From Olsenella profusa F0195 (GTDB lineage: Bacteria; Actinomycetota; Coriobacteriia; Coriobacteriales; Atopobiaceae): a stretch of 64,000 bases of DNA. The stretch covers positions 124,001 to 188,000 of the forward strand of contig NZ_AWEZ01000043.1 in the NCBI RefSeq assembly GCF_000468755.1, given 5' to 3'. The notes under the pieces were generated by a model. The model saw only the letters and a list, made by a program, of their open reading frames with translations, had not been told where the DNA came from and did not search any database. This document shows, in pieces, positions 1,939 through 43,957 of this stretch (the first letter of the stretch is position 1; each line of letters opens with the position of its first letter). Made by a program: the position numbers and the translations under genes.

Positions 1939-3363
1939 CTAGCGGATGCCCTCACGCGAGGCGGCAAGGTCGCTCACGAGCCGCTTGAAGAGCCTGCCGC
2001 GCTCCCCCATGTCATGGAACTCGTCAAACGAGGAGCAGGCGGGCGAGAGCAGCACCGTGTCGCCGGGGCATGCCGCGGACACGGCCGCCTTGAAGGCATC
2101 CCTCAGCCTGTCGGCCACGAGCACCCTGTCCTTCCCCATGCCCTCCGTGGCACAGGCCTGGGCGAGGCGTGCGCCGGCATCGCCAAAGCAGACGGCGACA
2201 CGGGCGCGGGAGGCGACGGAGCGGGCAAGGGGGTCGAGGTCGAGCCCCTTGTCGTGGCCTCCCAGGAGCAGCACGATCCTGCCCTGGTCGAAGGCGGTGA
2301 GCGCCTTCTCGACGGAGTCGGGGTTGGTCGCCTTGGAATCGTTCACGAAGTGGACGCCCCCCACCGCGCCGCACGGCTCGATGCGATGCTCGATGGGGTT
2401 GAAGGCACGCAGGCCCACGCTGGCATCCTCGGCGGAGACGCCCAGCTCGAGCGCCATGGATGCCGCCGCCAGGGCGTTCTCCACGTTATGGGCGCCCCTG
2501 ATGCGCAGCTCGTCCGCGCGAAGGAGCACGTGCTCGACGCCGTCGATGCGCACCACGAGGACGCCGCCGCGCACGAAGGCGGCGTGAGGCCCCCCCGGAT
2601 CCCGCTCGACGTCCACCACCAGCGTGCGCAGGCCGCGAGCGCGCTGGCGACCGGCAGCGGCACGGCACCGGTCGTCCGTGTCGCCGATGACGGCCAGGTC
2701 CCCGTCCGTGAGGTTGGCAAAGACCTTCTCCTTGGCGGCCGCATAGGCCTCCAGGGAACCGTGCCACTCGATGTGGTCGGGCGTGATGTTGAGCAGACAA
2801 GCGCAGCGCGGATGCAGCAGGCGCGTCTCCTCAAGCTGGAAGCTGGAAAGCTCCGCCACGAGCCAACGGCCCGCGGGGCGATCCTCCACGGCGTCGATGG
2901 TGGGCGTGCCAATGTTGCCCACGCAGGCGGCGTCCAACCCGCCCTGGGCGAGCAATGCCTGGGTGAGTAAGGTCGTGGTGGTCTTGCCGTTCGTCCCCGT
3001 GATGGCCACCCAGTCGTGCGGGCTCTCGCGCCATGCGAGCTCGGGCTCGCCGATGACCTCGGTGGCATGCGCCCTGGCAGAGGCAAGGAAGTCACTTGAC
3101 TCGGGAATGCCCGGGGAGGCGATGGCAAGGTCGAAGCTGCCGGAGACCTCTTCGGTACCCACGTGCACGACGGCACCCAGCGCCTCGAGCTCACGGGTGG
3201 TGCCCCCCACGGTGGAGCTCGCCCCTCCAAAGACCGTGACGGAGGAGACCCTGCCCTTGGGAAGGCCCAGCAGGTAGCGCCCGACGTCGTACCCCGTGCG
3301 GCCGAGACCCAGGACGCAGACGCTGCCCAGGGACCGATTCGCTTGAATGGCACTCTCAGACAT
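1939..3363 (-). CDS. murD: MurD, UDP-N-acetylmuramoyl-L-alanine:D-glutamate ligase
   Basis: A 474-residue cytoplasmic Mur ligase that adds D-Glu to UDP-MurNAc-L-Ala using ATP. The N-terminal Rossmann-like UDP-binding domain starts near VCVLGLGRTGYDVGRYL. The central ATPase domain has the P-loop ITGTNGKTTTT and the NITPDHIEWHGSLEAY motif. The C-terminal domain has FVNDSKATNPDS and LLLGGHDKGLD, all typical of MurD rather than MurC, MurE or MurF. Length is normal. It lies 9 nt after mraY and abuts ftsW, as in the classical dcw operon. Confidence 0.95.
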   Translation of the reverse strand: MSESAIQANRSLGSVCVLGLGRTGYDVGRYLLGLPKGRVSSVTVFGGASSTVGGTTRELEALGAVVHVGTEEVSGSFDLAIASPGIPESSDFLASARAHATEVIGEPELAWRESPHDWVAITGTNGKTTTTLLTQALLAQGGLDAACVGNIGTPTIDAVEDRPAGRWLVAELSSFQLEETRLLHPRCACLLNITPDHIEWHGSLEAYAAAKEKVFANLTDGDLAVIGDTDDRCRAAAGRQRARGLRTLVVDVERDPGGPHAAFVRGGVLVVRIDGVEHVLLRADELRIRGAHNVENALAAASMALELGVSAEDASVGLRAFNPIEHRIEPCGAVGGVHFVNDSKATNPDSVEKALTAFDQGRIVLLLGGHDKGLDLDPLARSVASRARVAVCFGDAGARLAQACATEGMGKDRVLVADRLRDAFKAAVSAACPGDTVLLSPACSSFDEFHDMGERGRLFKRLVSDLAASREGIR

Positions 3364-3372
3364 CGCGACCTC

Positions 3373-4404
3373 CTAGGCCAGTTGGAAGAACAGGGCGAAG
3401 CCGAGCGACGCAAAGGCGGCCGACACGATCCAGAAGCGAATGACCACCTTCGTCTCGCTCCAGCCCAGCTTCTCGAAGTGATGGTGTATGGGCGCCATGA
3501 GGAACACGCGCCTGCCCGTGAGCTTGAAGCTCGCCACCTGGATGATGACGGACAGCGCCTCGCAAATGAAGAGCCCCCCCATCACCAGGGACGTTATCTC
3601 GGTCTTGGTGAGCACGGCGAGGGCGGCGAGGGCGGCGCCCAACGCAAGCGAGCCCGTGTCGCCCATGAAGATGGATGCCGGATAGCAGTTGTGCCAGAGG
3701 AAGCCGATGCAGGCGCCTGCGATGGACGCGGCGAACACGGCGAGGTCGACCGAGCCAAAGCGAAACGCGACCATGGACATCACGATCATGACCACGAGCA
3801 CGCAGCCGCTCGAGAGTCCGTCGAGGCCATCCGTGAGGTTGACGGCGTTGGAGAGGCCGGCCATCAGCAGAAAGACGAAGAGCATATAGATCCAGGGAAC
3901 CGCGATGGTGGCGTCGCCCACGGCAACGGAGGTCGTGAGGGCACCCATGTCGATGCCAAGGCCACCGGGCAGCTCGACCACCGGGGAGATGCCGCAGCCG
4001 TTGACGGCGACCAGGCAGAACGTCACGGAGATGAGGACGAGGCCCACCATCTTCTGGGAGGGCGTGAGGCCAAGCGAGCGCTTGTGGGCCACGGACTCGA
4101 TGTCATCGAGCAGGCCGAGCGATCCCGTGACGAGCATGACAAGCACGGCCAGGACGAGCCCCAGGCTCCAGGTGCCCTGCACGGCGCAGGCCACGACCGT
4201 CGCCAGGAGCATGACGACGCCGCCCATGGTGGGCGTGCCCTGCTTCACGAGGTGCCGTTGGGGACCATCGGCGCGAATCTGCTGGCCGATCCCCTCGTGA
4301 CGCATGGCCTTGATGAAGAGGGGCATGGCAAGCGCCGTGAGTGCCGCCGCCACGGCGGCGGCGATGAACACCTGGTAGGTAGGGTAGCTGGGATCTCCGA
4401 TCAT
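3373..4404 (-). CDS. mraY: MraY, phospho-MurNAc-pentapeptide transferase
   Basis: A 343-residue integral membrane enzyme that transfers phospho-MurNAc-pentapeptide to undecaprenyl phosphate, making lipid I. Supporting motifs are GTPTMGG near the N-terminus, NAVNLTDGLDGLSSG (catalytic Asp region), FMGDTGSLALG and the cytoplasmic APIHHHFEKLGWSE histidine motif. About ten hydrophobic segments alternate with these loops. The ATG overlaps the murF stop as TAATG, so the two are probably translationally coupled. Length and gene order match the family. Confidence 0.95.
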   Translation of the reverse strand: MIGDPSYPTYQVFIAAAVAAALTALAMPLFIKAMRHEGIGQQIRADGPQRHLVKQGTPTMGGVVMLLATVVACAVQGTWSLGLVLAVLVMLVTGSLGLLDDIESVAHKRSLGLTPSQKMVGLVLISVTFCLVAVNGCGISPVVELPGGLGIDMGALTTSVAVGDATIAVPWIYMLFVFLLMAGLSNAVNLTDGLDGLSSGCVLVVMIVMSMVAFRFGSVDLAVFAASIAGACIGFLWHNCYPASIFMGDTGSLALGAALAALAVLTKTEITSLVMGGLFICEALSVIIQVASFKLTGRRVFLMAPIHHHFEKLGWSETKVVIRFWIVSAAFASLGFALFFQLA

Positions 4405-5855
4405 TAGGCAAGCACCTCCCTCACGAAGGCGTCGAGTCGTGCGGCGCGCGACGCCTTGACCAGCACGAGGTCTCCCTCGTCCACTATCGGGGCGATGACC
4501 CGTATGGCCTCGTCCACATCGCGCACGCGCTCCAGGCGATCCTCGGAGAACCCCATCGTGAGGGCGGCCTCGGCCATGCGGTCCGCGTCATCGGTGCCCA
4601 CAAGCACCAGGAGGTCGAGCGGCTTGGCGGCGGCATAGGCGCCCATGTAGCCGTGCAGGCGGGGCGCCGCCTCCCCCAGCTCGGCAACCTCACCCAGCAC
4701 GGCCACGCGGCGACCCTCGCAGGGCAGTGACGCAAGCACGTCGAGGGCCGCGGCCGTGGAGTTGGGGCTCGCATTGTAGGAGTCGTCGATCACGCGGGGC
4801 CTGCCGGGGCCGCCGGCGATCTCCATGCGCATGTGCGTCTGGGGCATGTGCGCCATGGCCGTGCAGGCCGCCGTGCGGTCTGCGCCCACACGCCACGAGA
4901 CGGCCAGGGCAAGCAGGAAGTCGCTCACCACATGGCGACCGGGCATCGGCAGCGTGACCTCGTCCCTCCAGCCATCCGAGCAGGTGACGGCGACATGGGC
5001 GCGGCCATCCCCGACAAGCGCCACGCGTGCGGCGCGCACGGAACAGCGCCCGTCCGCGCCGACGGAGAGCACCTCGATGCCTCGGGGGCGGGCATACTCG
5101 TCCTCGATGAGGGCGGCGTAGTCGTTGTCGGAGGTCATGACCAGGCAGGATCTCGCCCTCCCGCACCCCGCATCGGTGAGCTGCATGGACGAGAGGATCT
5201 CTGCCTTGGCACGGGCGATGGCCTCGCGGGAGCCCAGGTTGCCAATGTGGCTGGTGCCCACGTTGGTTATCACGGCAACGGTGGGACGGCCGCAGGCCGA
5301 GAGGCGCGTAAGCTCCCCAGCGTGGTTCATGCCCATCTCGGCCACCACGACCTCGTCGTCGGCCGAGGCCAAGAGCAGCGTGAGCGGCAGGCCGATGAGA
5401 TTGTTGTGGTTGCCCTCCGTGGCATGCACCTTGTAGCGCGTCGCGAGTGCGACGGCGAGCATGTCCTTGGTGGTGGTCTTCCCCACCGAGCCCGTCACGC
5501 CCACGACGACCCACTGGGGATTGCGCGTGCGCCAGGCGCCAGCGAGGCGCAGCATGAACTCCTCGGCATCGCCGCCCTCGGCAACGAGGACCGCGGCGTC
5601 CAGGTCGCGGGCTTCCGCCAGCACCTCGGCCTCGGGTTCGCGGGTCATGACGACGGCCGCGGCCCCCGCCCCCATGGCCGCCACGGCATAGTCGTTGCCA
5701 TCGACCCGCTCACCTGGAAAGCAGACGAAGAGCCCTCCCCGCCCCACCATACGTGAGTCGATGGCGACCCCCCTCACCTGGACGTCATCGGCGCCACCCG
5801 CAAGGCGTGCCCGCGTCGCGCCAACGATGTCCCCCACTGTCATGCAAACCATCAC
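4404..5855 (-). CDS. murF: MurF, UDP-MurNAc-tripeptide:D-Ala-D-Ala ligase
   Basis: A Mur ligase of about 480 residues that adds D-Ala-D-Ala to the UDP-MurNAc tripeptide. The central P-loop is VTGSVGKTTTKDM, followed by TEGNHNNLIGLPLTLL and EMGMNHAGEL, both diagnostic of MurF. IDDSYNASPNS and the C-terminal LVKASRAARLD complete the set. The start is uncertain among GTG 5855, ATG 5852 and ATG 5843; an AAGGGG Shine-Dalgarno sequence sits just upstream. It follows ftsI directly. murE, which usually lies between ftsI and murF, is not in this cluster and must be encoded elsewhere. Confidence 0.94.
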   Translation of the reverse strand: MMVCMTVGDIVGATRARLAGGADDVQVRGVAIDSRMVGRGGLFVCFPGERVDGNDYAVAAMGAGAAAVVMTREPEAEVLAEARDLDAAVLVAEGGDAEEFMLRLAGAWRTRNPQWVVVGVTGSVGKTTTKDMLAVALATRYKVHATEGNHNNLIGLPLTLLLASADDEVVVAEMGMNHAGELTRLSACGRPTVAVITNVGTSHIGNLGSREAIARAKAEILSSMQLTDAGCGRARSCLVMTSDNDYAALIEDEYARPRGIEVLSVGADGRCSVRAARVALVGDGRAHVAVTCSDGWRDEVTLPMPGRHVVSDFLLALAVSWRVGADRTAACTAMAHMPQTHMRMEIAGGPGRPRVIDDSYNASPNSTAAALDVLASLPCEGRRVAVLGEVAELGEAAPRLHGYMGAYAAAKPLDLLVLVGTDDADRMAEAALTMGFSEDRLERVRDVDEAIRVIAPIVDEGDLVLVKASRAARLDAFVREVLA

Positions 5856-5906
5856 AACCCCTTTAGCATGCGAAACCGTTCGATCGTGTCCCTGCGGGCC
5901 AGACGC

Positions 5907-7733
5907 CTACGTCCCCGGCGGGATCTGGAGCTCGGAGAGGGCCTCACCCATGATAGTCGAGAAGAGCGGGGCGGCGGAGTTCGTCGCGAGGTACGGGGTC
6001 CCGTTGAGGCCCACATACACCAGGACCTGTGCGTCACCCGCCGGCGCGAAGCCTATGAGTGACGAGACGTACTTGTTGGCCTCATAGCCGCCGCTCTCGC
6101 TCGCCTGTTCGCCCGTACCCGTCTTGCCTGCGATGTCATAACCCCGTACCTGGGCCTTTTCGGCGGTTCCCTCCTTCACCACCGTACGCATCATGTCCGT
6201 CACCTGAGAGGCGGTCGATGGGGAGACGGAGGCGCCCGGGCTGGGCCAGCTCGCCTGCTCGCCGCCCTTGCTCAGGAGAAAGTGCGGCGTCTCGAGGACG
6301 CCATCGTTGGCGATGGAGCCCACGGCCTTGACCATCTGATCGAGCGGGATGGAGAGCGACTGCCCAAACGACATGGATCCCAGGCTGGCGCCGTCGTACT
6401 CGCTGCGTTGCCTCACGATGCCGTTGGCCTCGCCCGGAAAGTCGATGCCCGTGGCGGTTCCGATGCCAAACCACTGAAGCCCCTGGGCGAAGCGATCCGC
6501 CCCAATGACGTTCTGGGCCACGAGCGCGGTTCCCACGTTCGAGGAGCGTCGCAGCATCTCGCGAATCGTCATGTCCATACGCTGCTTGCGCTTGTCATCG
6601 TCACGCACCATGTCATCGCCCACCTTCACCTGGGCGGGTACGTCAAAGGTCGAGTCTGGCGTGATGAGGCCGTCCTCGATGCCGATGGACATCGTGATGA
6701 GCTTGAAGATGGAACCGGGCTCGAAGGACGAGGAGACGGGCTTGAGCGAGGTGGCCCCCTCCTCCATCCGTGAGGTGTTCGTCACGTCGAAGAGGGGTGT
6801 CGAGCAGGCGGCTATGACCTCCCCCGTCCTGGGGTCGCTCACCATCACCGATCCAGAGTCCGCCTTGTAGTCCTTGACGCCCCTGCTGATGACCTCCTCG
6901 GCCTTCTGCTGGACGTCGATGTCGAGCGAGATCTGTATGTCCGTGCCGCCCACCGCCGTCGTCTGGGTGCGCGCGCCGCCCGCGATGGGGATGCCTCCAT
7001 TGCCCGTTTCCAGCGTGAGCGTGCCGTTGGTGCCCGAGAGAACGCCGTCGTAGTACTTCTCGAGACCCGTGAGGCCATCGCCATCGACGCCCACCACGCC
7101 AAGCACCTGGCTCGCCGCCGCTCCATAGGGGTACTCGCGGCGCATGTCATCCATGTAGTAGACGCCCGGGAGCCTGGCGGCGGCGAGGTCGCTCTTGAGC
7201 TGGTCGGCCTTGTCCGTGTCAACCTGACGGCGCACGTAGGAGAAGGTCGTGTCACCCGAGAGGGCCGAGAGGTACGAGGAGGGCTCTCCACCCAGGTCCT
7301 GTGCCATGATCTGCGCCACGGCGGTCTGATCGGTCACCTCCTTGGGGTTGCAGGTGACGGTCGTGCAGGCGACGCTCGTGGCAAGCACCTTGCCATTTCG
7401 ATCGTAGATGGTGCCGCGCTTGGCCTTGACCGGGAACTCGTTGGAACGGACGCTCGTTCCGAGCTCTTTGAGGCGTGGCCCGTCGATCACCTGTAGGTAG
7501 ACGAGGCGCATGGACACGATGGCAAGCAGGGCGGCGAGCACGATGGCGATCGTCCTGCCCGAGACGGCAACGTCACGCTCCTCGACGCCAAGGGGCGCGT
7601 CACCCTTCCCGCGCACCCCTGCGCCCAACCGAGCCTGCGCGCCGTAGGCCTGGCGAGGGGCCCCGCCTTCGGAGCCCCTCCCCGTCGTCCCCTGGCGGGG
7701 ACGCCCGTCTCGATATGTGCCCGTGTCTCTCAC
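5907..7733 (-). CDS. ftsI: FtsI/PBP class B transpeptidase for septation
   Basis: A 608-residue class B penicillin-binding protein that cross-links septal peptidoglycan. It has a basic Gly/Arg-rich cytoplasmic head (about 1-58), one transmembrane helix (about 60-80), a pedestal region beginning with RGTIYDRNG, and a C-terminal transpeptidase domain. Catalytic motifs are SIFK with Ser341, SSN at 397-399, and KTG at 537-539. No PASTA repeats follow. The GTG start has only a weak ribosome-binding site, so the exact N-terminus is uncertain. It lies between ftsL and murF in the dcw operon and would act with the FtsW encoded four genes downstream. Confidence 0.92.
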   Translation of the reverse strand: MRDTGTYRDGRPRQGTTGRGSEGGAPRQAYGAQARLGAGVRGKGDAPLGVEERDVAVSGRTIAIVLAALLAIVSMRLVYLQVIDGPRLKELGTSVRSNEFPVKAKRGTIYDRNGKVLATSVACTTVTCNPKEVTDQTAVAQIMAQDLGGEPSSYLSALSGDTTFSYVRRQVDTDKADQLKSDLAAARLPGVYYMDDMRREYPYGAAASQVLGVVGVDGDGLTGLEKYYDGVLSGTNGTLTLETGNGGIPIAGGARTQTTAVGGTDIQISLDIDVQQKAEEVISRGVKDYKADSGSVMVSDPRTGEVIAACSTPLFDVTNTSRMEEGATSLKPVSSSFEPGSIFKLITMSIGIEDGLITPDSTFDVPAQVKVGDDMVRDDDKRKQRMDMTIREMLRRSSNVGTALVAQNVIGADRFAQGLQWFGIGTATGIDFPGEANGIVRQRSEYDGASLGSMSFGQSLSIPLDQMVKAVGSIANDGVLETPHFLLSKGGEQASWPSPGASVSPSTASQVTDMMRTVVKEGTAEKAQVRGYDIAGKTGTGEQASESGGYEANKYVSSLIGFAPAGDAQVLVYVGLNGTPYLATNSAAPLFSTIMGEALSELQIPPGT

Positions 7734-7769
7734 GACGCACCATTCTAGGGCCCTGGCACCGGGAGCGTG

Positions 7770-8240
7770 CTAGTGCGCCTGAGTCTGCGCAGGCTCTGCA
7801 GACGACGCCTGGCCGGAGTCGGATGCGGCCGCGGAGGGGTCCTGAGTCGAGACGCGCTCGGGGGCGGGAGCGTAGACCATGCCGTAGTTCTCGGTCGCAA
7901 TCTGGTCGATGCGCGCGGAGTTGGAGAGGTCGGCATTCGTTATCCGCAGCGACACATTGAGCGCCTGGGCATCGGAGAGCTCCGTCTGCGTGACGCCGTT
8001 TGCCTGTAGGGCGGTAACCGTCGCCGTCGTGAGCACCACGCGGGCGACGCCCAGGGCAATGACGGCGACGATGCAGACGAGGGCAAGCCTGATGCGTCCC
8101 ATGAACTGTGTCGAGACGCCCTCGCGCTCGCGGGCGTCGCGGCCCCCGCCCTCGACGATAGAAAACGGCTCGTGATCCTGCCACCGGGCCTGTCTCTCGG
8201 CCATGTCGAGGCGATATGCCTCGGACCCTCGATATGCCAT
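7770..8240 (-). CDS. ftsL: FtsL-like septum formation protein
   Basis: A 156-residue bitopic membrane protein: about 55 charged cytoplasmic residues, one hydrophobic helix (IRLALVCIVAVIALGVARVVL), then a short extracytoplasmic region with the spacing of a coiled coil and a low-complexity Ala/Ser/Gln tail. FtsL scaffolds the FtsQBL complex that activates FtsWI. I chose the ATG at 8240 because it follows an AGGAG sequence and because the frame further upstream runs into the rsmH coding region. FtsL sequences diverge quickly, so the call rests on topology and position between rsmH and ftsI. Confidence 0.8.
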   Translation of the reverse strand: MAYRGSEAYRLDMAERQARWQDHEPFSIVEGGGRDAREREGVSTQFMGRIRLALVCIVAVIALGVARVVLTTATVTALQANGVTQTELSDAQALNVSLRITNADLSNSARIDQIATENYGMVYAPAPERVSTQDPSAAASDSGQASSAEPAQTQAH

Positions 8241-8371
8241 CGTCTCTCCTCTTGGACACCAGCTGGTGCCGGGTGGTGTGTTGGTAGTGCGTTTAGGCTG
8301 CGTTTGTGGTGCGGTGGTGCTGTGATGGTGCCATGCAACGGCTTGCGCCGGATGCATCTCGGTGTCGCACC

Positions 8372-9337
8372 CTATGCTTCCGTGACGTCGAGCTTTACCG
8401 CCACGCGCATGAGTGCGCTGCGCGACCGTGGGTTGGCCGCAACCTCCTCGCCCGATGGGACGAGGGGCCTCCTTGTCCTGACTTCGACTATCGGCACATG
8501 GCCGCATGCGCACACCGGAAGGTCCGGCGGGCAGACGCAGCCCTGGGAAAGCTCAGAGAACACGTGCTTCACCAGGCGATCCTCGAGCGAGTGGTACGAG
8601 ATGACGCAGATCCTGCCACCCGTGTCCGCCCAGCGAACAGCCGAGCGCAGCCCCCTCTCGAGAGCCTCCAGCTCATGGTTGACCTCGATGCGCAGGGCCT
8701 GGAAGGTCCTGCGCGCCGGGTGGCCCCCATGGCGACGGGCCGCGGCCGGGATGGCGCGCCGCACGATGTCCGCCAGCTGAAGCGTGGTCCGTATGGGCGC
8801 TCGCCCTCGCGCGTGCACGATGGCGTGGGCTATGCGCGACGCAAACCTCTCGTCGCTGTATATGCGCAGGATCCGGGCGAGGTCTGCCTCGTTGTAGGTG
8901 TTCACGACCTCGGCTGCGGTTAGGGTGTCGTCACCCGGATCCATGCGCATATCCAGCGGGGCGTCCTCGCGATATGAGAAGCCCCGAGAGGCGATGTCAA
9001 GCTGGGGGGACGATACGCCGAGGTCGAAGAGGAAGCAGTCGACGCCCGGCACCTCGACCTTGACGAGAAGCGCATCGAGGTCGCCGAAGTTCCCCTTGAG
9101 GAAGCGATGCTCCGCACCCGGCACCTCGCGCTCGAAGCGCTCGGTTGCGGCGGCAAGGGCCAGCTCGTCCTGGTCGATGCCCAGGGAGAGACCATCCGGC
9201 TGAATCCGCCTTGCCAGCTCGACCGTGTGGCTCGCACCACCGAGGGTACAGTCGCACACGACCTCGCCAGGGCGGGGATCCAGCTCGTGGAGCACCTGCT
9301 CGATCATCACTGGAATGTGCCGATATTCTTCTGTCAA
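8372..9337 (-). CDS. rsmH: RsmH (MraW), 16S rRNA m4C1402 methyltransferase
   Basis: A 321-residue SAM-dependent methyltransferase that N4-methylates C1402 of 16S rRNA. The N-terminus has the family HIPVMIEQVLHEL segment, motif I is CDCTLGGASHTVEL, and FLFDLGVSSPQLD plus GFSYREDAPLDMRMD are diagnostic of RsmH. The C-terminus has ALRIEVNHELEALERGL and ICVISYHSLEDRLVK. The start is a TTG with a GGGGAG sequence about 7 nt upstream. It is the second gene of the dcw operon, 12 nt after mraZ. Confidence 0.95.
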   Translation of the reverse strand: MTEEYRHIPVMIEQVLHELDPRPGEVVCDCTLGGASHTVELARRIQPDGLSLGIDQDELALAAATERFEREVPGAEHRFLKGNFGDLDALLVKVEVPGVDCFLFDLGVSSPQLDIASRGFSYREDAPLDMRMDPGDDTLTAAEVVNTYNEADLARILRIYSDERFASRIAHAIVHARGRAPIRTTLQLADIVRRAIPAAARRHGGHPARRTFQALRIEVNHELEALERGLRSAVRWADTGGRICVISYHSLEDRLVKHVFSELSQGCVCPPDLPVCACGHVPIVEVRTRRPLVPSGEEVAANPRSRSALMRVAVKLDVTEA

Positions 9338-9349
9338 GATGGCTCTCCC

Positions 9350-9781
9350 CTACTCGGAGAACATCAGGCTGTCAAGATCGGAGCTCGTCTCGGCCATCTG
9401 CTGGTCGAACGTCTGGGCATCCCAGATCTCGAAGTGGTCGATGTTCCCCACGATGGCCACCTCGCGGGCAAGGCCGCACTGTACGAGCTGCTGTGCGGGA
9501 AGCTTGCCCAGGGCAATGCGGCCAGCGCTGTCGACATCGACCGTCGTGGTGCTGGACGCGATGGCTCTCTGCAGCCGGACGTCCTTCGCATTGCGAGGGT
9601 TGAGCCCCGCGGGAAAGACGCTGCCGAGCCACTCCCGGTAGGTATCGGGGGTAAAGCCATAGAGCGCGCCGTTGAAGGGAACCAGGAGGACCTGCTCGTC
9701 CACCTGCCTGCGAAAGGTTGCCGGAAGCGTGACGCGTGACTTGGCATCCAGATTGTGACGATAGGTGCCCGTCAGGAACAT
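9350..9781 (-). CDS. mraZ: MraZ, AbrB-fold regulator of the dcw cluster
   Basis: A 143-residue protein with two tandem SpoVT/AbrB-like half domains. The first starts MFLTGTYRHNLDAKSRVTLP and the second contains VDVDSAGRIALGKLPAQQLV, the DxxGRxxLP-type motif repeated once per domain. MraZ forms a ring-shaped oligomer, binds repeated boxes upstream of its own gene and controls the division operon. The ATG at 9781 is preceded by AAGGAGG at good spacing; extending the frame upstream gives no conserved sequence and crosses the promoter. It is the first gene of the dcw operon here. Confidence 0.95.
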   Translation of the reverse strand: MFLTGTYRHNLDAKSRVTLPATFRRQVDEQVLLVPFNGALYGFTPDTYREWLGSVFPAGLNPRNAKDVRLQRAIASSTTTVDVDSAGRIALGKLPAQQLVQCGLAREVAIVGNIDHFEIWDAQTFDQQMAETSSDLDSLMFSE

Positions 9782-9839
9782 CACTCGACCTCCTTCTCGG
9801 TTCTCCGTTGGGAGAGCTCTCCCTCGAAAACGTGAGCTC

Positions 9840-9894
9840 ATTCTATGGCTGCTTCCGACACAAAACAACACTTTGCCCCACTTTATGACACCAA
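9840..9894 (-). promoter_or_regulatory. mraZ promoter with four-box MraZ operator
   Basis: On the reverse strand four consecutive 10-bp units cover 9855-9894, each with GTG at positions 4-6. The two central units begin AAAGTG, matching the AAAGTG box described for MraZ of Mollicutes. A plausible promoter overlaps them: -35 TTGTTT (9863-9868), 17-bp spacer, -10 TAGAAT (9840-9845), giving a leader of about 50 nt. The rest of the gap up to 10198 shows no gene or structure I can support. Confidence 0.7.
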
Positions 9895-10198
9895 AAGACA
9901 CCTGAATGGTCGGCGGCCCCTCCGAGATGAATCAATCCACAACATCTTGTGAGAACAGACGTTTGGTGACACAAAACTGTTGCAGGCTTTCGGGTTATGG
10001 GGAACCCTGGTGTGGAGGAATGATGAATATGCAGGTAGAATGCCCTATTCTAGGATTCGTAAGCTCCTGGGACAGCCCCTACCTGGACAGATGCCACCCC
10101 GTGACATGCACCCTGAAAGGCGGCATGAGGGTGGGGTGCCATCCCACAGCTTGTGGTGGGGCATGGTCCCACGGCACGGACCGCGGTAGCCCATGTGC

Positions 10199-11155
10199 CT
10201 ACCCACGATGGGCCCGTGGGTGAGCCTCGAGGTAGACCATGCGCACGTGCGTGCGATCGACATGCGTATACAGCTGGGTGGTGGAGACGTTCGCATGACC
10301 GAGCAGCTCCTGTACCACGCGCAGGTCGGCGCCGCCCTCCAGGAGGTGGGTTGCGAAGCTGTGGCGCAACGTGTGGGGATGCAGCCCATGGATGCCCACC
10401 ATCTCACCATATCGTTCCACGAGGCCAAACACTGCCTGCCGCGTGATGCGCGTTCCCCGTGCGCTCAGAAAGGCCGCACCACCGCCCCGCGAGTGTGCGT
10501 GCGCCGCCAGAAGCGGCCGCCACTGGCCGAGGTAGTCCGCAAGCGCACGGTTGGCGGTGCCCAACAGGGGCACCACACGCTCCTTGGAACCCTTGCCAAA
10601 GACGCGCACCACCTCGTCGGCAACGAGGACGTCCCGCACGTCCAGCCCGCAGAGCTCCGAGACGCGCAGGCCACACCCGTAGAGCACCTCGAGGATGGCC
10701 TTGTCGCGATGGAAGCAGGCAACGTTGGTGCGGTCTGGCTCACCGCTCCTGCGCGGCTTGGGGCTTGGTTCCTGGGCAAACGGCACATCCAGCAGCTCGA
10801 AGGCCTTCTCGCGCGAGATGACGTCGGGCAGGTGCTCGGGCCTCTTGGGCATCACGAGACCGGCGGCGGGATGGTTGGTGGTCTCCTGCTCGGCGACAAG
10901 AAAGCGATGGAAGCCCCTGATGGCCGAGACGGCCCGCTGCACCGAGGAGGAAGCCAGCCCCTGCCTCTCCAGCGAGGCCACGTGCGCCTCGATGTCATGA
11001 CGGGAGACGGCATCGACGTCCGTGATGCCGCCGCCGTTCAGATGGGAGACGTATCGCGCGAGATCGCGCCGATATGCCGCGACCGTGTTGGCAGAGCTGC
11101 CCCGCTCGATGGTGAGGTAGTCGAGGTACTCCCCCAGCGCGGCCTTCAGCTCCAC
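10199..11155 (-). CDS. XerD-type tyrosine recombinase
   Basis: A 318-residue site-specific recombinase with an N-terminal SAM-like core-binding domain (about 1-95) and a C-terminal catalytic domain. All catalytic residues are visible: Arg164 (GLRVSELCG), Lys188 (GKGSKERVVPL), His261 and Arg264 (HTLRHSFATHLLEGGA), His287 (LLGH) and Tyr296 (TTQLYTHV). The sequence is of chromosome-dimer resolution type (XerC/XerD). A loop of about 20 residues (near 126-148) is inserted before the first catalytic arginine. The start is GTG, 2 nt after the pyrG stop, so it is probably co-transcribed with pyrG. Assignment as XerD rather than XerC is by similarity only. Confidence 0.85.
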   Translation of the reverse strand: MELKAALGEYLDYLTIERGSSANTVAAYRRDLARYVSHLNGGGITDVDAVSRHDIEAHVASLERQGLASSSVQRAVSAIRGFHRFLVAEQETTNHPAAGLVMPKRPEHLPDVISREKAFELLDVPFAQEPSPKPRRSGEPDRTNVACFHRDKAILEVLYGCGLRVSELCGLDVRDVLVADEVVRVFGKGSKERVVPLLGTANRALADYLGQWRPLLAAHAHSRGGGAAFLSARGTRITRQAVFGLVERYGEMVGIHGLHPHTLRHSFATHLLEGGADLRVVQELLGHANVSTTQLYTHVDRTHVRMVYLEAHPRAHRG

Positions 11156-26970: not shown

Positions 26971-27009
26971 TTGATTTCAATCATAGAACGAACAGCGCAT
27001 CCCCCATAA
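26971..27009 (+). promoter_or_regulatory. FNR-like operator and promoter of pflA-pflB
   Basis: TTGATTTCAATCAT (26971-26984) matches the Fnr consensus TTGAT-N4-ATCAA at 9 of 10 positions. A -10-like CATAAA follows at 27004-27009, placing the box centre about 39 nt upstream of the expected start site, close to the -41.5 position of class II activation. The rest of the 305-nt gap 26739-27043 is A/T-rich and shows no gene. Confidence 0.68.
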
Positions 27010-27043
27010 AGTCGGCATGGTAGGCAGGCCAGAGGAGAGTCAG

Positions 27044-27790
27044 ATGCCACAGGGAAGGGTTCACTCATGCGAGTCGTTCGGCTCAGCCGATGGCCCGGGT
27101 GTGCGCTACCTCATCTTCCTGCAGGGCTGCGCCATGCGCTGCGCCTACTGCCACAACCCGGACACTTGGGATACAAACGCTGGTGAACTCAGGGGTGCCG
27201 ACGAGCTCCTGGATGAGGCTGAGCGCTACCGCAGCTACTGGGGGGAGGACGGCGGCATCACCGTGAGTGGCGGCGAGCCCCTCCTGCAGATCGACTTCCT
27301 CGTTGAGCTGTTCCAGAAGGCCAGGGAGCGTGGCATCAACACTTGCATCGACACGGCACTTGCGCCCTTCACGCACGATCAACCCTTTCTGGGTGAGTTC
27401 GAGGAGCTCATGGGCCTCACCGACCTCCTGCTCTGCGACATCAAGCACATCGACCCCACGGAGCACCGGCACCTCACCGGCCACGACAACGCCAACATCC
27501 TGAACGGGCTGAGGTACCTCTCAAAGATCGGCAAGCCCGTCTGGATCCGCCATGTGCTGGTGCCAGGCATCACCGACAACGATGACTACCTCAGGCGCAC
27601 CGCCGCCTTCATCCACACACTCTCCAACGTGGAGCGCATCGACGTGCTCCCCTATCACAGCCTGGGCGTCTTCAAGTGGGACGAGCTGGGCCTCACCTAC
27701 ACGCTGCGGGACGTCAAGCCGCCCACGGCAGAACGCGTGAACAATGCGCGAGAGATTCTCGACCAGCGGGTCGAGACGGTCGCGCCATAG
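27044..27790 (+). CDS. pflA: Pyruvate formate-lyase activating enzyme (radical SAM)
   Basis: A 248-residue radical SAM enzyme that installs the glycyl radical on PFL. The [4Fe-4S] motif CAMRCAYC (CX3CX2C) lies near residue 30, preceded by ESFGSADGPGVRYLIFLQG. TVSGGEPLLQ is the GGE motif that binds SAM. I chose ATG 27044 because AGGAG lies just upstream; the earlier ATG 27017 has no ribosome-binding site. pflB follows after 24 nt behind AAGGAGG, so they form an operon. Confidence 0.94.
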   Translation: MPQGRVHSCESFGSADGPGVRYLIFLQGCAMRCAYCHNPDTWDTNAGELRGADELLDEAERYRSYWGEDGGITVSGGEPLLQIDFLVELFQKARERGINTCIDTALAPFTHDQPFLGEFEELMGLTDLLLCDIKHIDPTEHRHLTGHDNANILNGLRYLSKIGKPVWIRHVLVPGITDNDDYLRRTAAFIHTLSNVERIDVLPYHSLGVFKWDELGLTYTLRDVKPPTAERVNNAREILDQRVETVAP

Positions 27791-37800: not shown

Positions 37801-38652
37801 CTACGCCCCCAAGGTGTCAATCGGGATGACGTACACCCCATCCGAGCCTCGCCTGCGCGCCATCGTGCCCTTTCCCAACAGCACGGCCATGAAGCTGGGC
37901 TTGGGGTTGCGCGCCGCGGGATTTGCGGCCACCTTCGCAGCAAGCCGCATGAGATTGGCAGCTGCTTTCTCGACCTTCGACTCCCCCGTCTTGATCTCGA
38001 CGGCAGCCCACCGACCGTCAGCTAGCTCGATGATGGCATCAACCTCAAGGCCGTCGGCATCCGCGTAATACCGCAGGGAGCTCCCGTACGACTCGGGCAG
38101 GGCAGAGACGTAGACGAACAAATCGTGAATGCAGAGCGATTCGATCAAAAGACCAAGCAGCTGACCGTCTTTGAGCAAGTGTGAGGGGTCGACACCGAGC
38201 AGACTAGCCACGAGGGAGGTATCGCAGAGATAGCGCTTCGGCTTTGTGCGGAGCCTTGACCTCGATCTGATTGGGGCGTCCCAACCCGGCAGCTCCTCGA
38301 TGAAGTAGTTGCGCCTGAATTCCTCGAGATACGAGGATATGGTCGCATCGGCTGGGGCGACGTCGCCAAGGGCAGCGATGTCGCTTCTCATGGTGCCCAT
38401 CGTCGCACTTGTCGCCACGTTACGCGCGAGGGACGTGGCAATGCGACGGGACAGGACGGGGCTTTTCCCTGCATGGGGCATACTCACCTCGAACAGTGCG
38501 TCGAGATAGCCCGCTGCAACGACCTTGGGGTTCGTCGACTCGCCCGTCTGAAGAGCCGGCCATCCACCACGGCATACTTCGAGCAAATCCAACAACGATT
38601 TTCGAGTCAACTCGCTTTGGTCTTTCGAGGAGCTTGGGTACAGACGCACCAT
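37801..38652 (-). pseudogene. 5'-truncated ATPase with DUF4143 domain
   Basis: 283 codons corresponding to the C-terminal two thirds of a P-loop ATPase of the AAA_14/DUF4143 type. The N-terminal ATPase domain with Walker A and B is absent. What remains starts in the linker (SLLDLLEVCRGGWPAL), continues through the winged-helix-like SSYLEEFRRNYFIEELPGWD region and ends in the DUF4143 nuclease-like segment (SSLRYYADADGLEVDAIIELADGRWAAVEIKTGESKVEKAA). The remaining frame is clean, so truncation was at the 5' end. Short direct repeats flank it on both sides. Role of the intact family is unclear. Confidence 0.72.
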
Positions 38653-39548: not shown

Positions 39549-39754
39549 GTGCGCCTCCTTTCAGGGACAAACATGCCCCAGAAGTCCGCGACGGTCAATC
39601 GACGCTTCGTTTGCCCGCACAAAAGACCTGTTGGCTCTGTGTCTCTGCCGTACATTGCCAGTGGGATGGCACGTGGCTCCAGAAGGTCACGCATATCAGT
39701 CTATAGTTTCCCTATAAAGACAAGTTTAGGCTTACTTTGATGGGAGTGTGTCGC

Positions 39755-40414
39755 ATGAGGACGGCAGAGCAGTACAAGCGCCTCTCCATAGAGGAGTTCA
39801 CGAAGGCGGCCGAGACGTACGAGACGTACGAGACGGACGATGCCGGCATCTACGAGCCGTGCCGTGCCGAGTACCCCAGCATCCTGAAAGAATTTGAGAG
39901 GGAACCCTTCGAGGACCTTCTCGACTGTGGGTGCGGGACGGGTCCCATGACCTCGCTCCTGCACAAGAGATGGCCGAATCGCCGCTACACCGACCTCGGC
40001 CTCACGCCCAAGATGATCGAGGTCGCCCGGGCAAAGGCGTGCGCCAACGTCAGGTTCGTGGTAAGCGACTGCAAGGACATCCCCTTCGAGGACTCATCGT
40101 TTGACGTCGCAATCTGCTCCATGAGCTTCCACCACTACCCCAATCTCCAGGACTTTTTTGACAGCGTGTCTCGCGTTCTGAGGCCCGGAGGCAAGCTTGT
40201 GCTCAACGACAGCACCGGCAACGCCCTTATGGTCTGGTTCATCAATCACGTAGAGCTGCCGCTGGCAAACCTCCTCCACAAGGGCGATGTGCGCATCTAT
40301 TCCAGAAAGGAAATCGAGCGGATGCGCCAGGAGTCCAGGCTCACCCTCGAAGTCTTCCGAAACGACAGGCTCTGGCATCTTCATGCCGTGATGCGCAAGC
40401 CCAGGGCCATTTAG
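39755..40414 (+). CDS. Class I SAM-dependent methyltransferase
   Basis: A 219-residue methyltransferase: motif I is LLDCGCGTGPMTSLL, motif II region VVSDCKDIPFEDSSFDVAIC, and SFHHYPNLQDFFDSVSRVLRPGGKLVLND is the motif III/IV region of UbiE-like enzymes. The C-terminal part has a hydrophobic helix. Substrate unknown. I chose ATG 39755 because GGGAG lies 8 nt upstream; ATG 39740 is possible. The upstream gap has a small dyad TATAG-N6-TATA (about 39702-39717) near a TATAAA sequence, possibly the promoter and an operator for a neighbouring XRE-type regulator. Confidence 0.82.
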   Translation: MRTAEQYKRLSIEEFTKAAETYETYETDDAGIYEPCRAEYPSILKEFEREPFEDLLDCGCGTGPMTSLLHKRWPNRRYTDLGLTPKMIEVARAKACANVRFVVSDCKDIPFEDSSFDVAICSMSFHHYPNLQDFFDSVSRVLRPGGKLVLNDSTGNALMVWFINHVELPLANLLHKGDVRIYSRKEIERMRQESRLTLEVFRNDRLWHLHAVMRKPRAI

Positions 40415-40813
40415 GTGGTCATGCGAGCTGGTCCACCTAGTAAACCAGCTATCACACCTCAGGTGAAACCGAGGATTGCTCCAACCGCCCTTTGGGCTCT
40501 ACATGTGAGTTACTGGCCTTGTTCGCTCGTCTTCATGTCCGTGGGCAAGTGCGGCGCACAGGCATCGTGTGCCTCATCGCAATGGTTGACAGTGAGATCC
40601 TTGAGCACTGACGATGTGGCATAGATGAGGCCGAGCTTCATCTCCTTCCCCGCGGTTGATTTTTCTGGGTGACATTTGACATAGCTTCCATTGTTGCTGA
40701 CTCCGTGGCGATTCATAATTTCTTAATGAGTTCACAGTCCTTCTGAGTGGACCCACGGTCGAATCACAGCGAAGGCTCCGCTCGCCACACCTGATAGAAA
40801 CCGGAGGGAGCAT
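40415..40813. other. Intergenic region with a possible small Cys-containing ORF (reverse strand)
   Basis: 399 nt without a recognised gene. On the reverse strand 40510-40716 could encode 68 residues, or 43 from an internal ATG directly after GGGGAAGGAG. The end contains NHCDEAHDACAPHLP. Because a radical-SAM tail and a peptide exporter lie downstream, a decayed RiPP precursor is conceivable, but coding is unproven. Confidence 0.2.
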
Positions 40814-42031
40814 ATATCTGCTTTCGATTCCATCAACATCGGGGCGGTTATTGCTCGGAAGAGAAAAAGACGCAGCATGACCCAAGGGGATGTCGCGAAC
40901 TTTGTCGGGGTGTCGAAGGCCGCCGTTTCCAAGTGGGAACTCGGCATCAGTCTTCCCGATATCACGTTGCTGCCAAAGCTGTCCGCGCTTTTCTCCATCA
41001 GCATCGAGGAATTGCTGGGCTACGAAGCAATGCTGCCAGAGAAAACAGTCCAGGAGATACGCGACAAACTCCTTGAGGAATTCAAGGCTGATTCAGCAGA
41101 GGCATACGAACACCTGGACATCATTGTCAGGCTCCACTACTCGAGCTGGTCTCTGCTGTTCACCGCTGCCGCTTTGTTGCTTGCAGTGAACAATGGGACA
41201 GCAGGAGCGAGCAAACATGAGGATGCGATGAGGTTCACAGGCAGGGGCGTAGAGTATTGCGAACGAGTTGAGCGAGATTGTCCGATTGAGGCCCTTGTAA
41301 GAAAGGCGAGAAAGTTACATGTGATGTTCTTGCTCCTGTCGCTTGGAGATGGCGGGGAAGGTCTCGACGAAATCGTCGCTCTATTGGGCCCGAACGCAGA
41401 AACGGACTCGTCTTCCGCCCCTCTGCTCGCCGAGGCCTACTACATAAGCGGCGATTTCGAATCGGCACGCCACCTATTCCAGCTTATGCTTGCGGATGGC
41501 GTAGAGCTTATCCTCGCAAGCGTGCCTTTTATGCTCCGGCTCGTCTCGAGCGAAGACGATGCAGCGATATCCGATTGCGCACTGCTCGCCACACAGCTCT
41601 ATGATCACTTCGGGAGAAGCGTCATCGACCCTCTTATCGTACTAGGGATTTTCTTCTCGGTTGCATGCATAAGCCTGTCGCGGAAGGACCTGGACGGTGC
41701 GACGCGCGCTTTCGCCGCCTACGCTGTCGCAGTGAATGACCTGGATGCAGTGAAGAGTGACCCGAGCGATACTGCCCCCTTACATGCCTTCGCCAAGGCA
41801 AGGAGGAACGAAACCCTGGAAGACCTTGTCGAGGGAGGAAACACACTCCGATATATTGAGGAAGCGCTTCGCATCTTGCACGCCCATGCAGAAGCGATGT
41901 CATCCAGAACGTGGCTCTGCCTGGCAGAGACGAAGGAATATAAGGGCGCATTGGGCGGGGCGCAGAGGGCAATTGCTCGCTTTAATGAATATAAAAGACT
42001 CTCTGAGCAGGAAAGAGAGTTTCAACGATGA
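40814..42031 (+). CDS. XRE family regulator with long helical-repeat domain; unusual start
   Basis: About 405 residues. The helix-turn-helix reads SINIGAVIARKRKRRSMTQGDVANFVGVSKAAVSKWELGISLPDITLLPKLS, followed by about 330 residues of helical, TPR-like character (LAEAYYISGDFESARHLFQLML). The domain begins upstream of the first ATG (40877). A strong GGAGGG ribosome-binding site lies 6 nt before ATA at 40814, where ATG would be expected (ATA TCT GCT TTC GAT). Either ATA is used, the gene starts at 40877 without its first HTH helix, or the start is mutated. It is the first gene of a group with the SPASM fragment and ABC exporter. Confidence 0.7.
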   Translation: MSAFDSINIGAVIARKRKRRSMTQGDVANFVGVSKAAVSKWELGISLPDITLLPKLSALFSISIEELLGYEAMLPEKTVQEIRDKLLEEFKADSAEAYEHLDIIVRLHYSSWSLLFTAAALLLAVNNGTAGASKHEDAMRFTGRGVEYCERVERDCPIEALVRKARKLHVMFLLLSLGDGGEGLDEIVALLGPNAETDSSSAPLLAEAYYISGDFESARHLFQLMLADGVELILASVPFMLRLVSSEDDAAISDCALLATQLYDHFGRSVIDPLIVLGIFFSVACISLSRKDLDGATRAFAAYAVAVNDLDAVKSDPSDTAPLHAFAKARRNETLEDLVEGGNTLRYIEEALRILHAHAEAMSSRTWLCLAETKEYKGALGGAQRAIARFNEYKRLSEQEREFQR

Positions 42032-42078
42032 AAAACTATCTGACTCTTTCGTATGATTAACATCGTGAGGAACTTTAG

Positions 42079-42330
42079 CGACTACCAGGACTTAGGGCGG
42101 CCCAAGAGGCAGTAGACCAGTATAACGTGCACGTATTGTCACACTGCTCGAAGTGCAATGTGTCTCGCCTCTGCCCAAAGTGCTTCGCAACAACTGAGGA
42201 TGACCCTTACTACCATCTCGGCGATTCGTTTTGTGCGGCCATTCGCAGAACGATCGAGAAGAGGTTATCTGTCTATGCCACCATTATGAAGAGGAATCCG
42301 CATGCATTTTCTCAGGCATTTGGTCAGTAA
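42079..42330 (+). pseudogene. C-terminal SPASM-like fragment of a radical SAM peptide maturase
   Basis: Open from 42079 to the TAA at 42328. The sequence HCSKCNVSRLCPKCFA followed about 17 residues later by FCAAIRRTIEKRL has the CX2CX5CX2C...C spacing of the auxiliary [4Fe-4S] (SPASM) domain at the end of radical SAM RiPP maturases. No radical SAM core (CX3CX2C) lies upstream; the XRE gene comes right before. It overlaps the ABC transporter start by 29 nt, as adjacent RiPP genes often do. I read it as the remaining 3' end of a deleted maturase. Confidence 0.6.
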
Positions 42331-43957
42331 CAGAGGCAGCTCCCTGCGCCTCTTGACTCCATACGTTCGGGGCAACAAGGGCAAACTGACCGGCGCAGGC
42401 GCGCTCCTCCTCTGCTATTCGGCCTTGACCGTGCTTCCATCATTGGTTATGCAGCTACTCATCGATGATGGGTTCGGTACTGGAAGGCTGAACATCATAA
42501 TACTGCTCGCGGTTTCGCTGGTTGTCATTGCAGGTGCCCAATCCCTGCTCTCGGTCAGTGTGGCGAAGCTACTTGCAAGGGTCGGGCAAGGCATCGTCTC
42601 GGATTTTCGCGGCGCTTTGGTCTCTCGAGCGCTATCGATGCCTACCGATTGGCTTTCGGACAAGGATGACGGCTATATCGCATCGAGGATTAATGAGGCA
42701 AACAACGTCTCCTCGCTTTTCTCACAGACGAGTTTTACCTTTTTGAGCAGTATCCTTCAGGCGATGGTCGCTATGTCACTCATGGCGTCAACCGATGTGC
42801 GCATCTTGTTTTTCGCCATGCTGCCGATTCCCGTGTATGCAGCCTATGCGGTTCATTCTGTACGGAAATACAGAGTTGCCATGGCCGAAGCGTTCGAGGC
42901 AGGCGCACGACTTGCGGGCAGGACGACGGAGGCGGTTGCGAGCAGGGAGGAAGCGAAGATAAATGCCTCCTCCGCCTATGGGACGAAGAGGGTTGACCGA
43001 GCGAACAGGCTATTCAGGGACAAGTCAATCAGGCAGGCTGTTCTTGCCTCCGTGACAGGCGAGAGCATGAAGGTCTTGACAACGGCATCTGCCGCCCTGG
43101 TATATATCGTTTGCGGCGTGCTCATGGGTGACTCTAGGTTGTCTCTGGGGCAGATCGTTGCATCCGTGCAGTATGCCTCATACCTCTACAGCCCCTTTCT
43201 TGTCGCAGTGTCAGTGTCTATATCACTTCAGCCTGCCCTTGCCGCACTCGACCGTATAGCCGGGGTATTCCCAGCGGATTCCCCTGCCTATGGCGCCCCC
43301 GTCATGATGAGGACAGAACCCACGGAGATTGAGATAAGGGATCTGAGCTTTAGGTGGGGCGGTGGGGATAGGATCTTATTTGGGGGACTCAATGCCAACC
43401 TAGTACGACCGTCGCTTGTCCTGATCAAGGGCGCCAATGGAAGTGGAAAGACCACCCTCGCCAAGATACTCCTGGGATCGATTCAGAATTGGTCGGGCTC
43501 GATCCTTGTTGATGGCATTCCCCTCAAGTCAATAGCCACCGACTCATGGAAAGGGTACTGTTCAGCGGTCTCGCAGCATCCCTTCCTCTTGAATGCCAGC
43601 ATACGTGAAAACGTCTCGTTCGGGATCGAGAAGATGGATGAGGAAGCCTATGAGATGGCTCTTCACCTATCGGGTCTGGATGAGATCATCAGCAGGCTTC
43701 CGGAGGGAGAGCTGACGGAAGTCGGACCGGCCGCCTCAAGGCTTTCTGGTGGAGAGCGACAGAAGGTGGCAATTGCGCGGGCGGTCTTACGTGGAGCATC
43801 AGTACTCATATTTGATGAGCCTGCAAGTGGCTTGGACGAGCTATCAAGAACCTGTCTCACAGAGCTGCTCAGAACCCTCTCTCGAGACAGGCTGGTAATC
43901 GTGATCGACCATGAGAATTTGTTCAATGACATTGCTACCTCAACGATATGCCTGTAA
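42302..43957 (+). CDS. ABC exporter, fused permease/ATPase (peptide or RiPP type)
   Basis: 551 residues: an N-terminal six-helix exporter domain (about 20-300) and a C-terminal nucleotide-binding domain with Walker A GANGSGKTTLA, signature SRLSGGERQKVAIARA, Walker B VLIFDEPASGLDE and the H-loop in VIVIDHENLF. No N-terminal C39 peptidase. The ATG follows GAAGAGGA within the end of the SPASM fragment. Such exporters move bacteriocins, modified peptides or lipids. The context suggests export of a radical-SAM-modified peptide whose maturase is now broken. The 248-nt gap after it shows nothing supported. Confidence 0.85.
   Translation: MHFLRHLVSNRGSSLRLLTPYVRGNKGKLTGAGALLLCYSALTVLPSLVMQLLIDDGFGTGRLNIIILLAVSLVVIAGAQSLLSVSVAKLLARVGQGIVSDFRGALVSRALSMPTDWLSDKDDGYIASRINEANNVSSLFSQTSFTFLSSILQAMVAMSLMASTDVRILFFAMLPIPVYAAYAVHSVRKYRVAMAEAFEAGARLAGRTTEAVASREEAKINASSAYGTKRVDRANRLFRDKSIRQAVLASVTGESMKVLTTASAALVYIVCGVLMGDSRLSLGQIVASVQYASYLYSPFLVAVSVSISLQPALAALDRIAGVFPADSPAYGAPVMMRTEPTEIEIRDLSFRWGGGDRILFGGLNANLVRPSLVLIKGANGSGKTTLAKILLGSIQNWSGSILVDGIPLKSIATDSWKGYCSAVSQHPFLLNASIRENVSFGIEKMDEEAYEMALHLSGLDEIISRLPEGELTEVGPAASRLSGGERQKVAIARAVLRGASVLIFDEPASGLDELSRTCLTELLRTLSRDRLVIVIDHENLFNDIATSTICL

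What the first reader, a model, noticed from the sequence alone, without database searches (positions are those of the whole stretch)
40814..43957. Remnant of a radical-SAM peptide system: regulator, SPASM tail, ABC exporter
A cysteine pattern typical of SPASM domains ends directly on the start of an intact peptide-type ABC exporter, and a large XRE regulator precedes it. The radical SAM core and precursor gene are gone or decayed; a small Cys-containing ORF (40510-40716, reverse) could be a trace of the latter. An intact relative of this locus elsewhere could define an undescribed RiPP family.
Basis: inference. Interest (0 to 1): 0.6.

Follow-up and report, generated by a model that had tools for sequence, protein, structure and literature searches.

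The report
Broken peptide-modifying enzyme beside exporter gene
A bacterial genome carries the last sixth of a radical SAM peptide-modifying enzyme next to an intact exporter gene and a damaged regulator gene: a decayed peptide-making operon of a known general kind, interesting mainly as a fossil.

Summary
The open frame 42079-42330 is the C-terminal end (residues 413-484 of 499 in the best intact relative) of a radical SAM/SPASM peptide maturase, with the last five SPASM cysteines. It overlaps by 29 bases the start of an intact 551-aa ABC exporter (42302-43957). The catalytic core and the precursor are absent. A second, complete genome of the same species (G109) has the same remnant (1 difference in 252 bases), so it is not an assembly fault and the loss predates the split of the two strains. 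The regulator is also damaged: its start codon is ATA here (ATG in G109), and G109 has a stop at codon 367. Only the exporter looks maintained. The reverse ORF 40510-40716 is not a precursor: it is frameshifted between the strains. No intact copy of this operon was found in 395 genomes of the order. The nearest intact maturases sit in sactipeptide-like loci (G033; Ruminococcus albus plasmid pRUMAL03, annotated 'huazacin family'). The regulator family is widespread and often precedes ABC transporter genes without any maturase. Verdict: a real relic of a known kind, low to modest interest.

The parts
40814..42031 (+). XRE-family (HTH plus helical C-terminal part) regulator, 405 codons; start codon ATA here, so probably a pseudogene or poorly translated
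   Evidence: HTH_3 E=3.3e-8; G109 has ATG at the same place and TGA at codon 367; family alignment
42032..42093 (+). junction between the regulator gene and the maturase homology; no maturase homology detected here, also with a frameshift allowed
   Evidence: observed summed score reached by 107 of 300 shuffles
42079..42330 (+). C-terminal remnant (83 codons, preceded by an in-frame stop) of a radical SAM/SPASM peptide maturase; last five SPASM cysteines; homology from 42094
42302..43957 (+). intact type I ABC exporter, membrane domain plus ATPase, 551 aa, no peptidase domain; start overlaps the remnant by 29 bases
   Evidence: PF00664 E=2.8e-24, PF00005 E=7.5e-26; 98% identical in G109; pN/pS 0.31
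40510..40716 (-).
   Evidence: no family match; one-base indel at 40643 breaks it in G109

Best explanation
This is the relic of a radical SAM RiPP operon in the order regulator - (precursor) - maturase - exporter. A deletion removed everything from just behind the regulator to within the C-terminal SPASM domain of the maturase, leaving its last ~78 codons in front of the exporter. In the intact ancestor the maturase would have cross-linked a Cys-containing precursor (thioether chemistry, as in sactipeptide maturases) and the ABC exporter would have carried the product out, under the XRE regulator (inferred from intact relatives). Today no modified peptide can be made from this locus. The regulator is decaying. 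The exporter is intact and seems still under selection, so it probably keeps a job of its own, such as export or self-protection (inferred). Shown: homology of the tail, absence of the core, sharing of the relic by two genomes of the species, lesions of the regulator, intact exporter. Inferred: the deletion event, the former product, the present job of the exporter.
For: NCBIfam: five radical SAM peptide maturase families match the fragment only at their C-terminal ends (TIGR03906 399-460 of 467; lachnocin 376-424 of 440; RumMC 436-501 of 510; TIGR04148 344-406 of 411; CcpM 407-458 of 462). Intact 499-aa maturase in G033, same family: 37.5% identity over 72 residues, ending 15 residues before its C-terminus. 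Alignment with nine intact maturases: the five cysteines are invariant in all ten rows. The spacing agrees with the RumMC motif ...CX2CX5CX2CX18C quoted in PMC8172795 (passages read), with 16 instead of 18 in the last gap. The homology begins 11 codons before the only start codon (GTG 42127) and the frame is closed upstream by a stop, as expected of a truncated gene. Second genome G109: same remnant, 1 of 252 bases different, exporter 21 of 1627 different outside the overlap. No maturase core elsewhere: the intact G033 maturase finds nothing at 1e-30 in G000 or G109. Exporter pN/pS 0.31, Fisher p=0.009, 21 differences. Regulator: ATA/ATG start, TGG/TGA at codon 367, tail behind that stop 9 of 120 different against 25 of 1098 in the body (p=0.004).
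Against: Pfam's own SPASM model does not match the fragment, and the NCBIfam matches are far below the families' cut-offs (expected for a fragment). The first two SPASM cysteines cannot be seen. No genome was found that has the intact operon with this exporter, so regulator, maturase and exporter as one ancestral unit is inferred. In G069 the regulator's relative abuts a 51% identical exporter with no maturase between, and G132, G002 and G060 have the exporter without a detected maturase. So the exporter need not have belonged to a RiPP system. The remnant is slightly less diverged than its surroundings (1 of 252 against 56 of 2892, Fisher p=0.08), which leaves some room for a function.
Confidence: 0.9

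Rival explanations
1. Stand-alone small metal-binding protein: the 67-83-aa frame is a functional zinc-ribbon or iron-sulphur mini-protein co-translated with the exporter.
For: No difference in 204 bases from GTG 42127 to 42330 between two strains. The frame overlaps the exporter start. The four-cysteine core resembles zinc ribbons weakly (ZZ_ADA2 E=0.009, DUF7569 E=0.02, both below cut-off).
Against: Homology continues 11 codons upstream of the only start codon towards a stop. 7 of 8 matches in other species are in long frames of 355-524 codons. Found as a short frame of this kind in only one species.
Confidence: 0.06
2. The remnant is kept only as a leader that couples translation to the exporter (a refinement of the relic reading, not exclusive of it).
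For: 29-base overlap with the exporter start; low divergence of the remnant.
Against: The exporter has its own Shine-Dalgarno-like AGAGGA before ATG 42302, and no good one precedes GTG 42127 (read). The low divergence is only marginally unusual (p=0.08).
Confidence: 0.12
3. Regulator and exporter are an old two-gene unit of their own (antibiotic- or peptide-responsive exporter), into which a maturase was once inserted or placed nearby; the RiPP link of these two genes is incidental.
For: In G069 a relative of the regulator directly abuts a 51% identical exporter. The regulator family precedes ABC ATPase genes within 300 bases in 8 of 14 neighbourhoods examined, which have no maturase match.
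Against: The regulator's relatives mostly stand before ABC ATPase plus separate permease-like genes, not this exporter type. Maturase remnant and exporter overlap, as genes of one operon do.
Confidence: 0.3

Closest known systems
Radical SAM/SPASM sactipeptide maturases (CcpM TIGR04068, RumMC NF035951, lachnocin NF038170; huazacin/thuricin Z type loci)
   Same: C-terminal sequence and the last five SPASM cysteines with nearly the same spacing
   Different: Only the tail is left; no core, no precursor; the exporter is a one-gene type I ABC protein instead of the ATPase plus permease pair of the G033 and R. albus pRUMAL03 loci
Intact sactipeptide-like locus in G033 (same family): precursor, maturase, second SPASM protein, ABC ATPase, ABC-2 permease
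   Same: Its maturase is the best match to the remnant (37.5% over 72 residues)
   Different: No match to the window's XRE regulator beside it and no one-gene exporter of ~550 aa in its ORF list
Type I ABC exporters (MsbA-, CydD-, bacteriocin-exporter-like)
   Same: Membrane and ATPase domains above Pfam cut-offs
   Different: No C39 peptidase domain; below all curated NCBIfam cut-offs shown; substrate unknown
XRE regulator family common in this bacterial order, often standing before ABC transporter genes
   Same: HTH region and length; 79% identity over 107 residues in G143, 28-59% in parts elsewhere
   Different: Start codon lost in the window's genome; truncated by a stop in G109

Membership tests
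Radical SAM/SPASM peptide maturase | Homology to the C-terminal SPASM region, including CX2CX5CX2C...C | tested here: met
   motif of RumMC from PMC8172795 passages
Radical SAM/SPASM peptide maturase | Radical SAM core with CX3CX2C | tested here: not met
   no core next to the tail; the profile of nine maturases finds only the tail at this locus; nothing at 1e-30 in the genome with the G033 maturase
Radical SAM/SPASM peptide maturase | First two SPASM cysteines (CX13GX4C) | tested here: not met
   homology starts downstream of them; upstream extension no better than shuffles
Sactipeptide / RiPP system | Precursor peptide gene near the maturase | tested here: not met
   small Cys-containing ORFs listed; the proposed one is frameshifted in the second strain and has no family match
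Sactipeptide / RiPP system | Exporter gene in the operon | tested here: met
   intact ABC exporter overlapping the remnant
Sactipeptide / RiPP system | Thioether cross-linked product | not testable with these tools
   would need expression; the maturase is broken here
Stand-alone zinc-ribbon protein | Occurs as a short self-starting protein | tested here: not met
   7 of 8 matches in other species lie in frames of 355-524 codons
Type I ABC exporter | ABC membrane domain fused to ABC ATPase | tested here: met
   PF00664 and PF00005 above cut-off
XRE regulator family of the order | Intact N-terminal HTH with start codon | tested here: not met
   ATA in place of ATG at 40814; no other start listed before ATG 40877

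The most novel reading that the evidence does not exclude
An intact version of this operon survives in unsampled relatives: a one-gene ABC exporter, an XRE regulator of the family common in this order and a maturase of the CcpM/RumMC neighbourhood, making a RiPP class not yet described from this bacterial order and controlled by a regulator that senses the product or a peptide.
Probability: 0.2. Interest if true: 0.45.

Novelty: new member of a known kind. Interest (0 to 1): 0.2.

Why it matters
The locus shows that a radical SAM peptide operon once existed in this species and was lost while its exporter stayed. That is a small but clean example of how exporter or self-protection genes can outlive the peptide they belonged to. 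The search also turned up an intact sactipeptide-like locus in a related genome (G033), which is the more useful lead. As a mechanism nothing here is outside known kinds.

Tried and rejected
Precursor trace at 40510-40716: rejected, frameshifted in the second strain and no family match. Extension of the maturase homology upstream of 42094 with a frameshift: by eye a piece in another frame (from 42054) looked suggestive, but the scored test gave 107 of 300 shuffles at or above the observed sum and 190 of 300 for the maximum, so I do not claim it. Cysteine pattern alone as evidence: too weak. Intact operon: none in 395 genomes of the order by tail or by exporter (E<=1e-80: only G000, G109, G002, G132, G069); tail in a sample of 348 genomes of the family of G395 (reached through L024, whose record title says Lachnospiraceae): 7 matches, all weaker than G033. 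I fetched the surroundings of all 7 and used 5 of them in the maturase profile; L043 (191-codon frame, no maturase match) and L044 (355-codon maturase-like frame, no match to the G033 maturase at 1e-4) were left out. Exporter in plasmids at 1e-60: no match. Exporter, regulator and G033 maturase in viral contigs: none confirmed. Exporter in genome contigs: 4 distant relatives only (27-31% in part), not useful; records near the window's genome may be left out there. Phage records: 7 distant maturase matches, not followed up. PDB: the maturase profile matches CteB-like and anSME chains (5wgg, 4k36; names of 5wgg recalled), which places the family only. Regulator neighbourhoods: 15 fetched of the 79 matches listed; counts use 14 of them, G143 (broken regulator) told apart. 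Literature: 'SPASM, radical SAM, pseudogene, RiPP' 1 paper (listing only); 'Coriobacteri, radical SAM, RiPP' 1 paper (listing only); 'Olsenella, sactipeptide' 4 papers (listing only); 'huazacin, sactipeptide, radical SAM' 10 papers (listing), of which PMC8172795 was read in passages only.

Full report
What was checked. The window lies in a 73-contig genome (G000:C43:124001-188000). The frame 42079-42330 is open, is preceded by an in-frame stop, and ends 29 bases inside an ABC gene of 551 codons. Upstream is a 405-codon XRE frame (40814-42031).

The fragment is the tail of a radical SAM/SPASM maturase. Five NCBIfam maturase families match it, each at its own C-terminal end, E 1.4e-3 to 0.024; Pfam SPASM does not match. 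A search of 395 genomes of the order found the tail in 3: the window's genome, another genome of the same species (G109, 1 contig) and, at E=1.7e-9 in a 499-codon frame, G033 of the same family. Full comparison gives 37.5% identity over 72 residues, window 42094-42309 against residues 413-484 of 499. In an alignment with nine intact maturases the five cysteines of the fragment are invariant. The order and spacing fit the second motif given for RumMC in a review of sactipeptides (CX13GX4CX36CX2CX5CX2CX18C; PMC8172795, passages seen), with 16 residues instead of 18 in the last gap and without the first two cysteines. A profile from the nine intact maturases scores this frame at E=2e-15 among 1672 six-frame pieces; the next, at 26987-27787, has E=0.0015, and reversed pieces reach 1.2 at best. 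Six of the nine were found through the fragment, so this last test is partly circular; one search is independent. The cysteine pattern alone would not suffice: 19 of 100 shuffled windows contain it.

It is a remnant, not a small gene. The homology runs 11 codons upstream of the only start codon (GTG 42127) and stops near 42094; between the end of the regulator and 42094 no maturase homology is detectable, also with a frameshift allowed. Seven of the eight matches in other species (G033 plus seven of 348 genomes sampled from the family of G395) lie in frames of 355-524 codons, the eighth in one of 191. No maturase like that of G033 was found elsewhere in G000 or G109 (no match at 1e-30). G109 carries the same remnant with 1 difference in 252 bases, so the loss is older than the split of the two strains and is not an assembly fault.

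The neighbours. The exporter is complete, with membrane and ATPase domains, 98% identical in G109, with 11 synonymous and 10 non-synonymous differences, pN/pS 0.31, p=0.009. It has no peptidase domain, and its NCBIfam matches shown are below cut-off, so its substrate is unknown. The regulator is damaged in both strains by different lesions: ATA instead of ATG at its start in the window, TGA instead of TGG at codon 367 in G109, where 12 of 14 aligned relatives have a tryptophan; behind that stop divergence rises from 25 of 1098 to 9 of 120 (p=0.004). The reverse ORF 40510-40716 is broken by a one-base indel in G109 and is not a precursor.

Relatives of the parts. Exporters at E<=1e-80 occur in 5 of 395 genomes of the order; in none of the other species was a maturase found beside it (G132, G069, G002; likewise the more distant G060). 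In G069 a regulator of the same kind abuts it. The regulator family was found in 74 of 297 genomes; in 8 of 14 neighbourhoods an ABC ATPase follows within 300 bases and no maturase was matched in any. So the XRE gene says 'regulated transporter' more than 'RiPP'. Intact maturases nearest to the tail lie in sactipeptide-like loci: G033 has a 50-residue Cys/Gly-rich candidate precursor behind a good ribosome site, the maturase, a second SPASM-like protein (TIGR04193 E=3.8e-10), an ABC ATPase and an ABC-2 permease; Ruminococcus albus 7 plasmid pRUMAL03 has a closely similar order with two peptides annotated as huazacin family.

Best reading. A radical SAM RiPP operon lost its precursor and most of its maturase by deletion before the two strains split; the regulator is decaying; the exporter persists, probably with a job of its own. 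The chemistry of the lost enzyme (thioether cross-linking) is inferred from relatives. That regulator, maturase and exporter formed one operon is likely from the overlap but not shown by any intact example. The finding is a genuine relic of a known kind, of low to modest interest; the hoped-for undescribed RiPP family was not found in what could be searched.

Noticed in passing
L012 (G033) 6055-11049, minus strand: Intact sactipeptide-like locus: 50-aa Cys/Gly-rich candidate precursor with ribosome site, CcpM-like maturase (236 bits, cut-off 500), second SPASM-like protein, ABC ATPase and permease; similar order to the annotated huazacin-family locus of R. albus pRUMAL03.
   Followed up: partly
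L040 (G675) 5899-8870: Two Cys-rich candidate precursors (66 and 68 aa) before a maturase, a second protein and ABC genes, in the same arrangement as the huazacin-type locus.
   Followed up: no
L013 (G109) about 2600-5320: An IS21-like element (two transposase-like frames; name recalled) sits just downstream of the exporter in G109, flanked by a second copy of the last ~511 bases of the exporter gene region; absent in the window.
   Followed up: partly
window 37801-38652: An ATPase-like gene (283 aa) lacks about 600 internal bases that G109 has (484 aa there), so it is another gene damaged in one strain only.
   Followed up: no
window 39811-39840: 9-base tandem repeat (3.3 copies) inside the methyltransferase gene 39737-40414; G109 has one unit fewer.
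   Followed up: no
L046 (G188) 6046-8821: Another maturase locus in the same order: radical SAM protein (481 aa) followed by a 337-aa protein and a 104-aa protein.
   Followed up: no
L067 (G143) 7993-8621: The closest relative of the regulator (79% identity over 107 residues) is itself broken by a stop and gaps, with no exporter of this kind beside it.
   Followed up: partly
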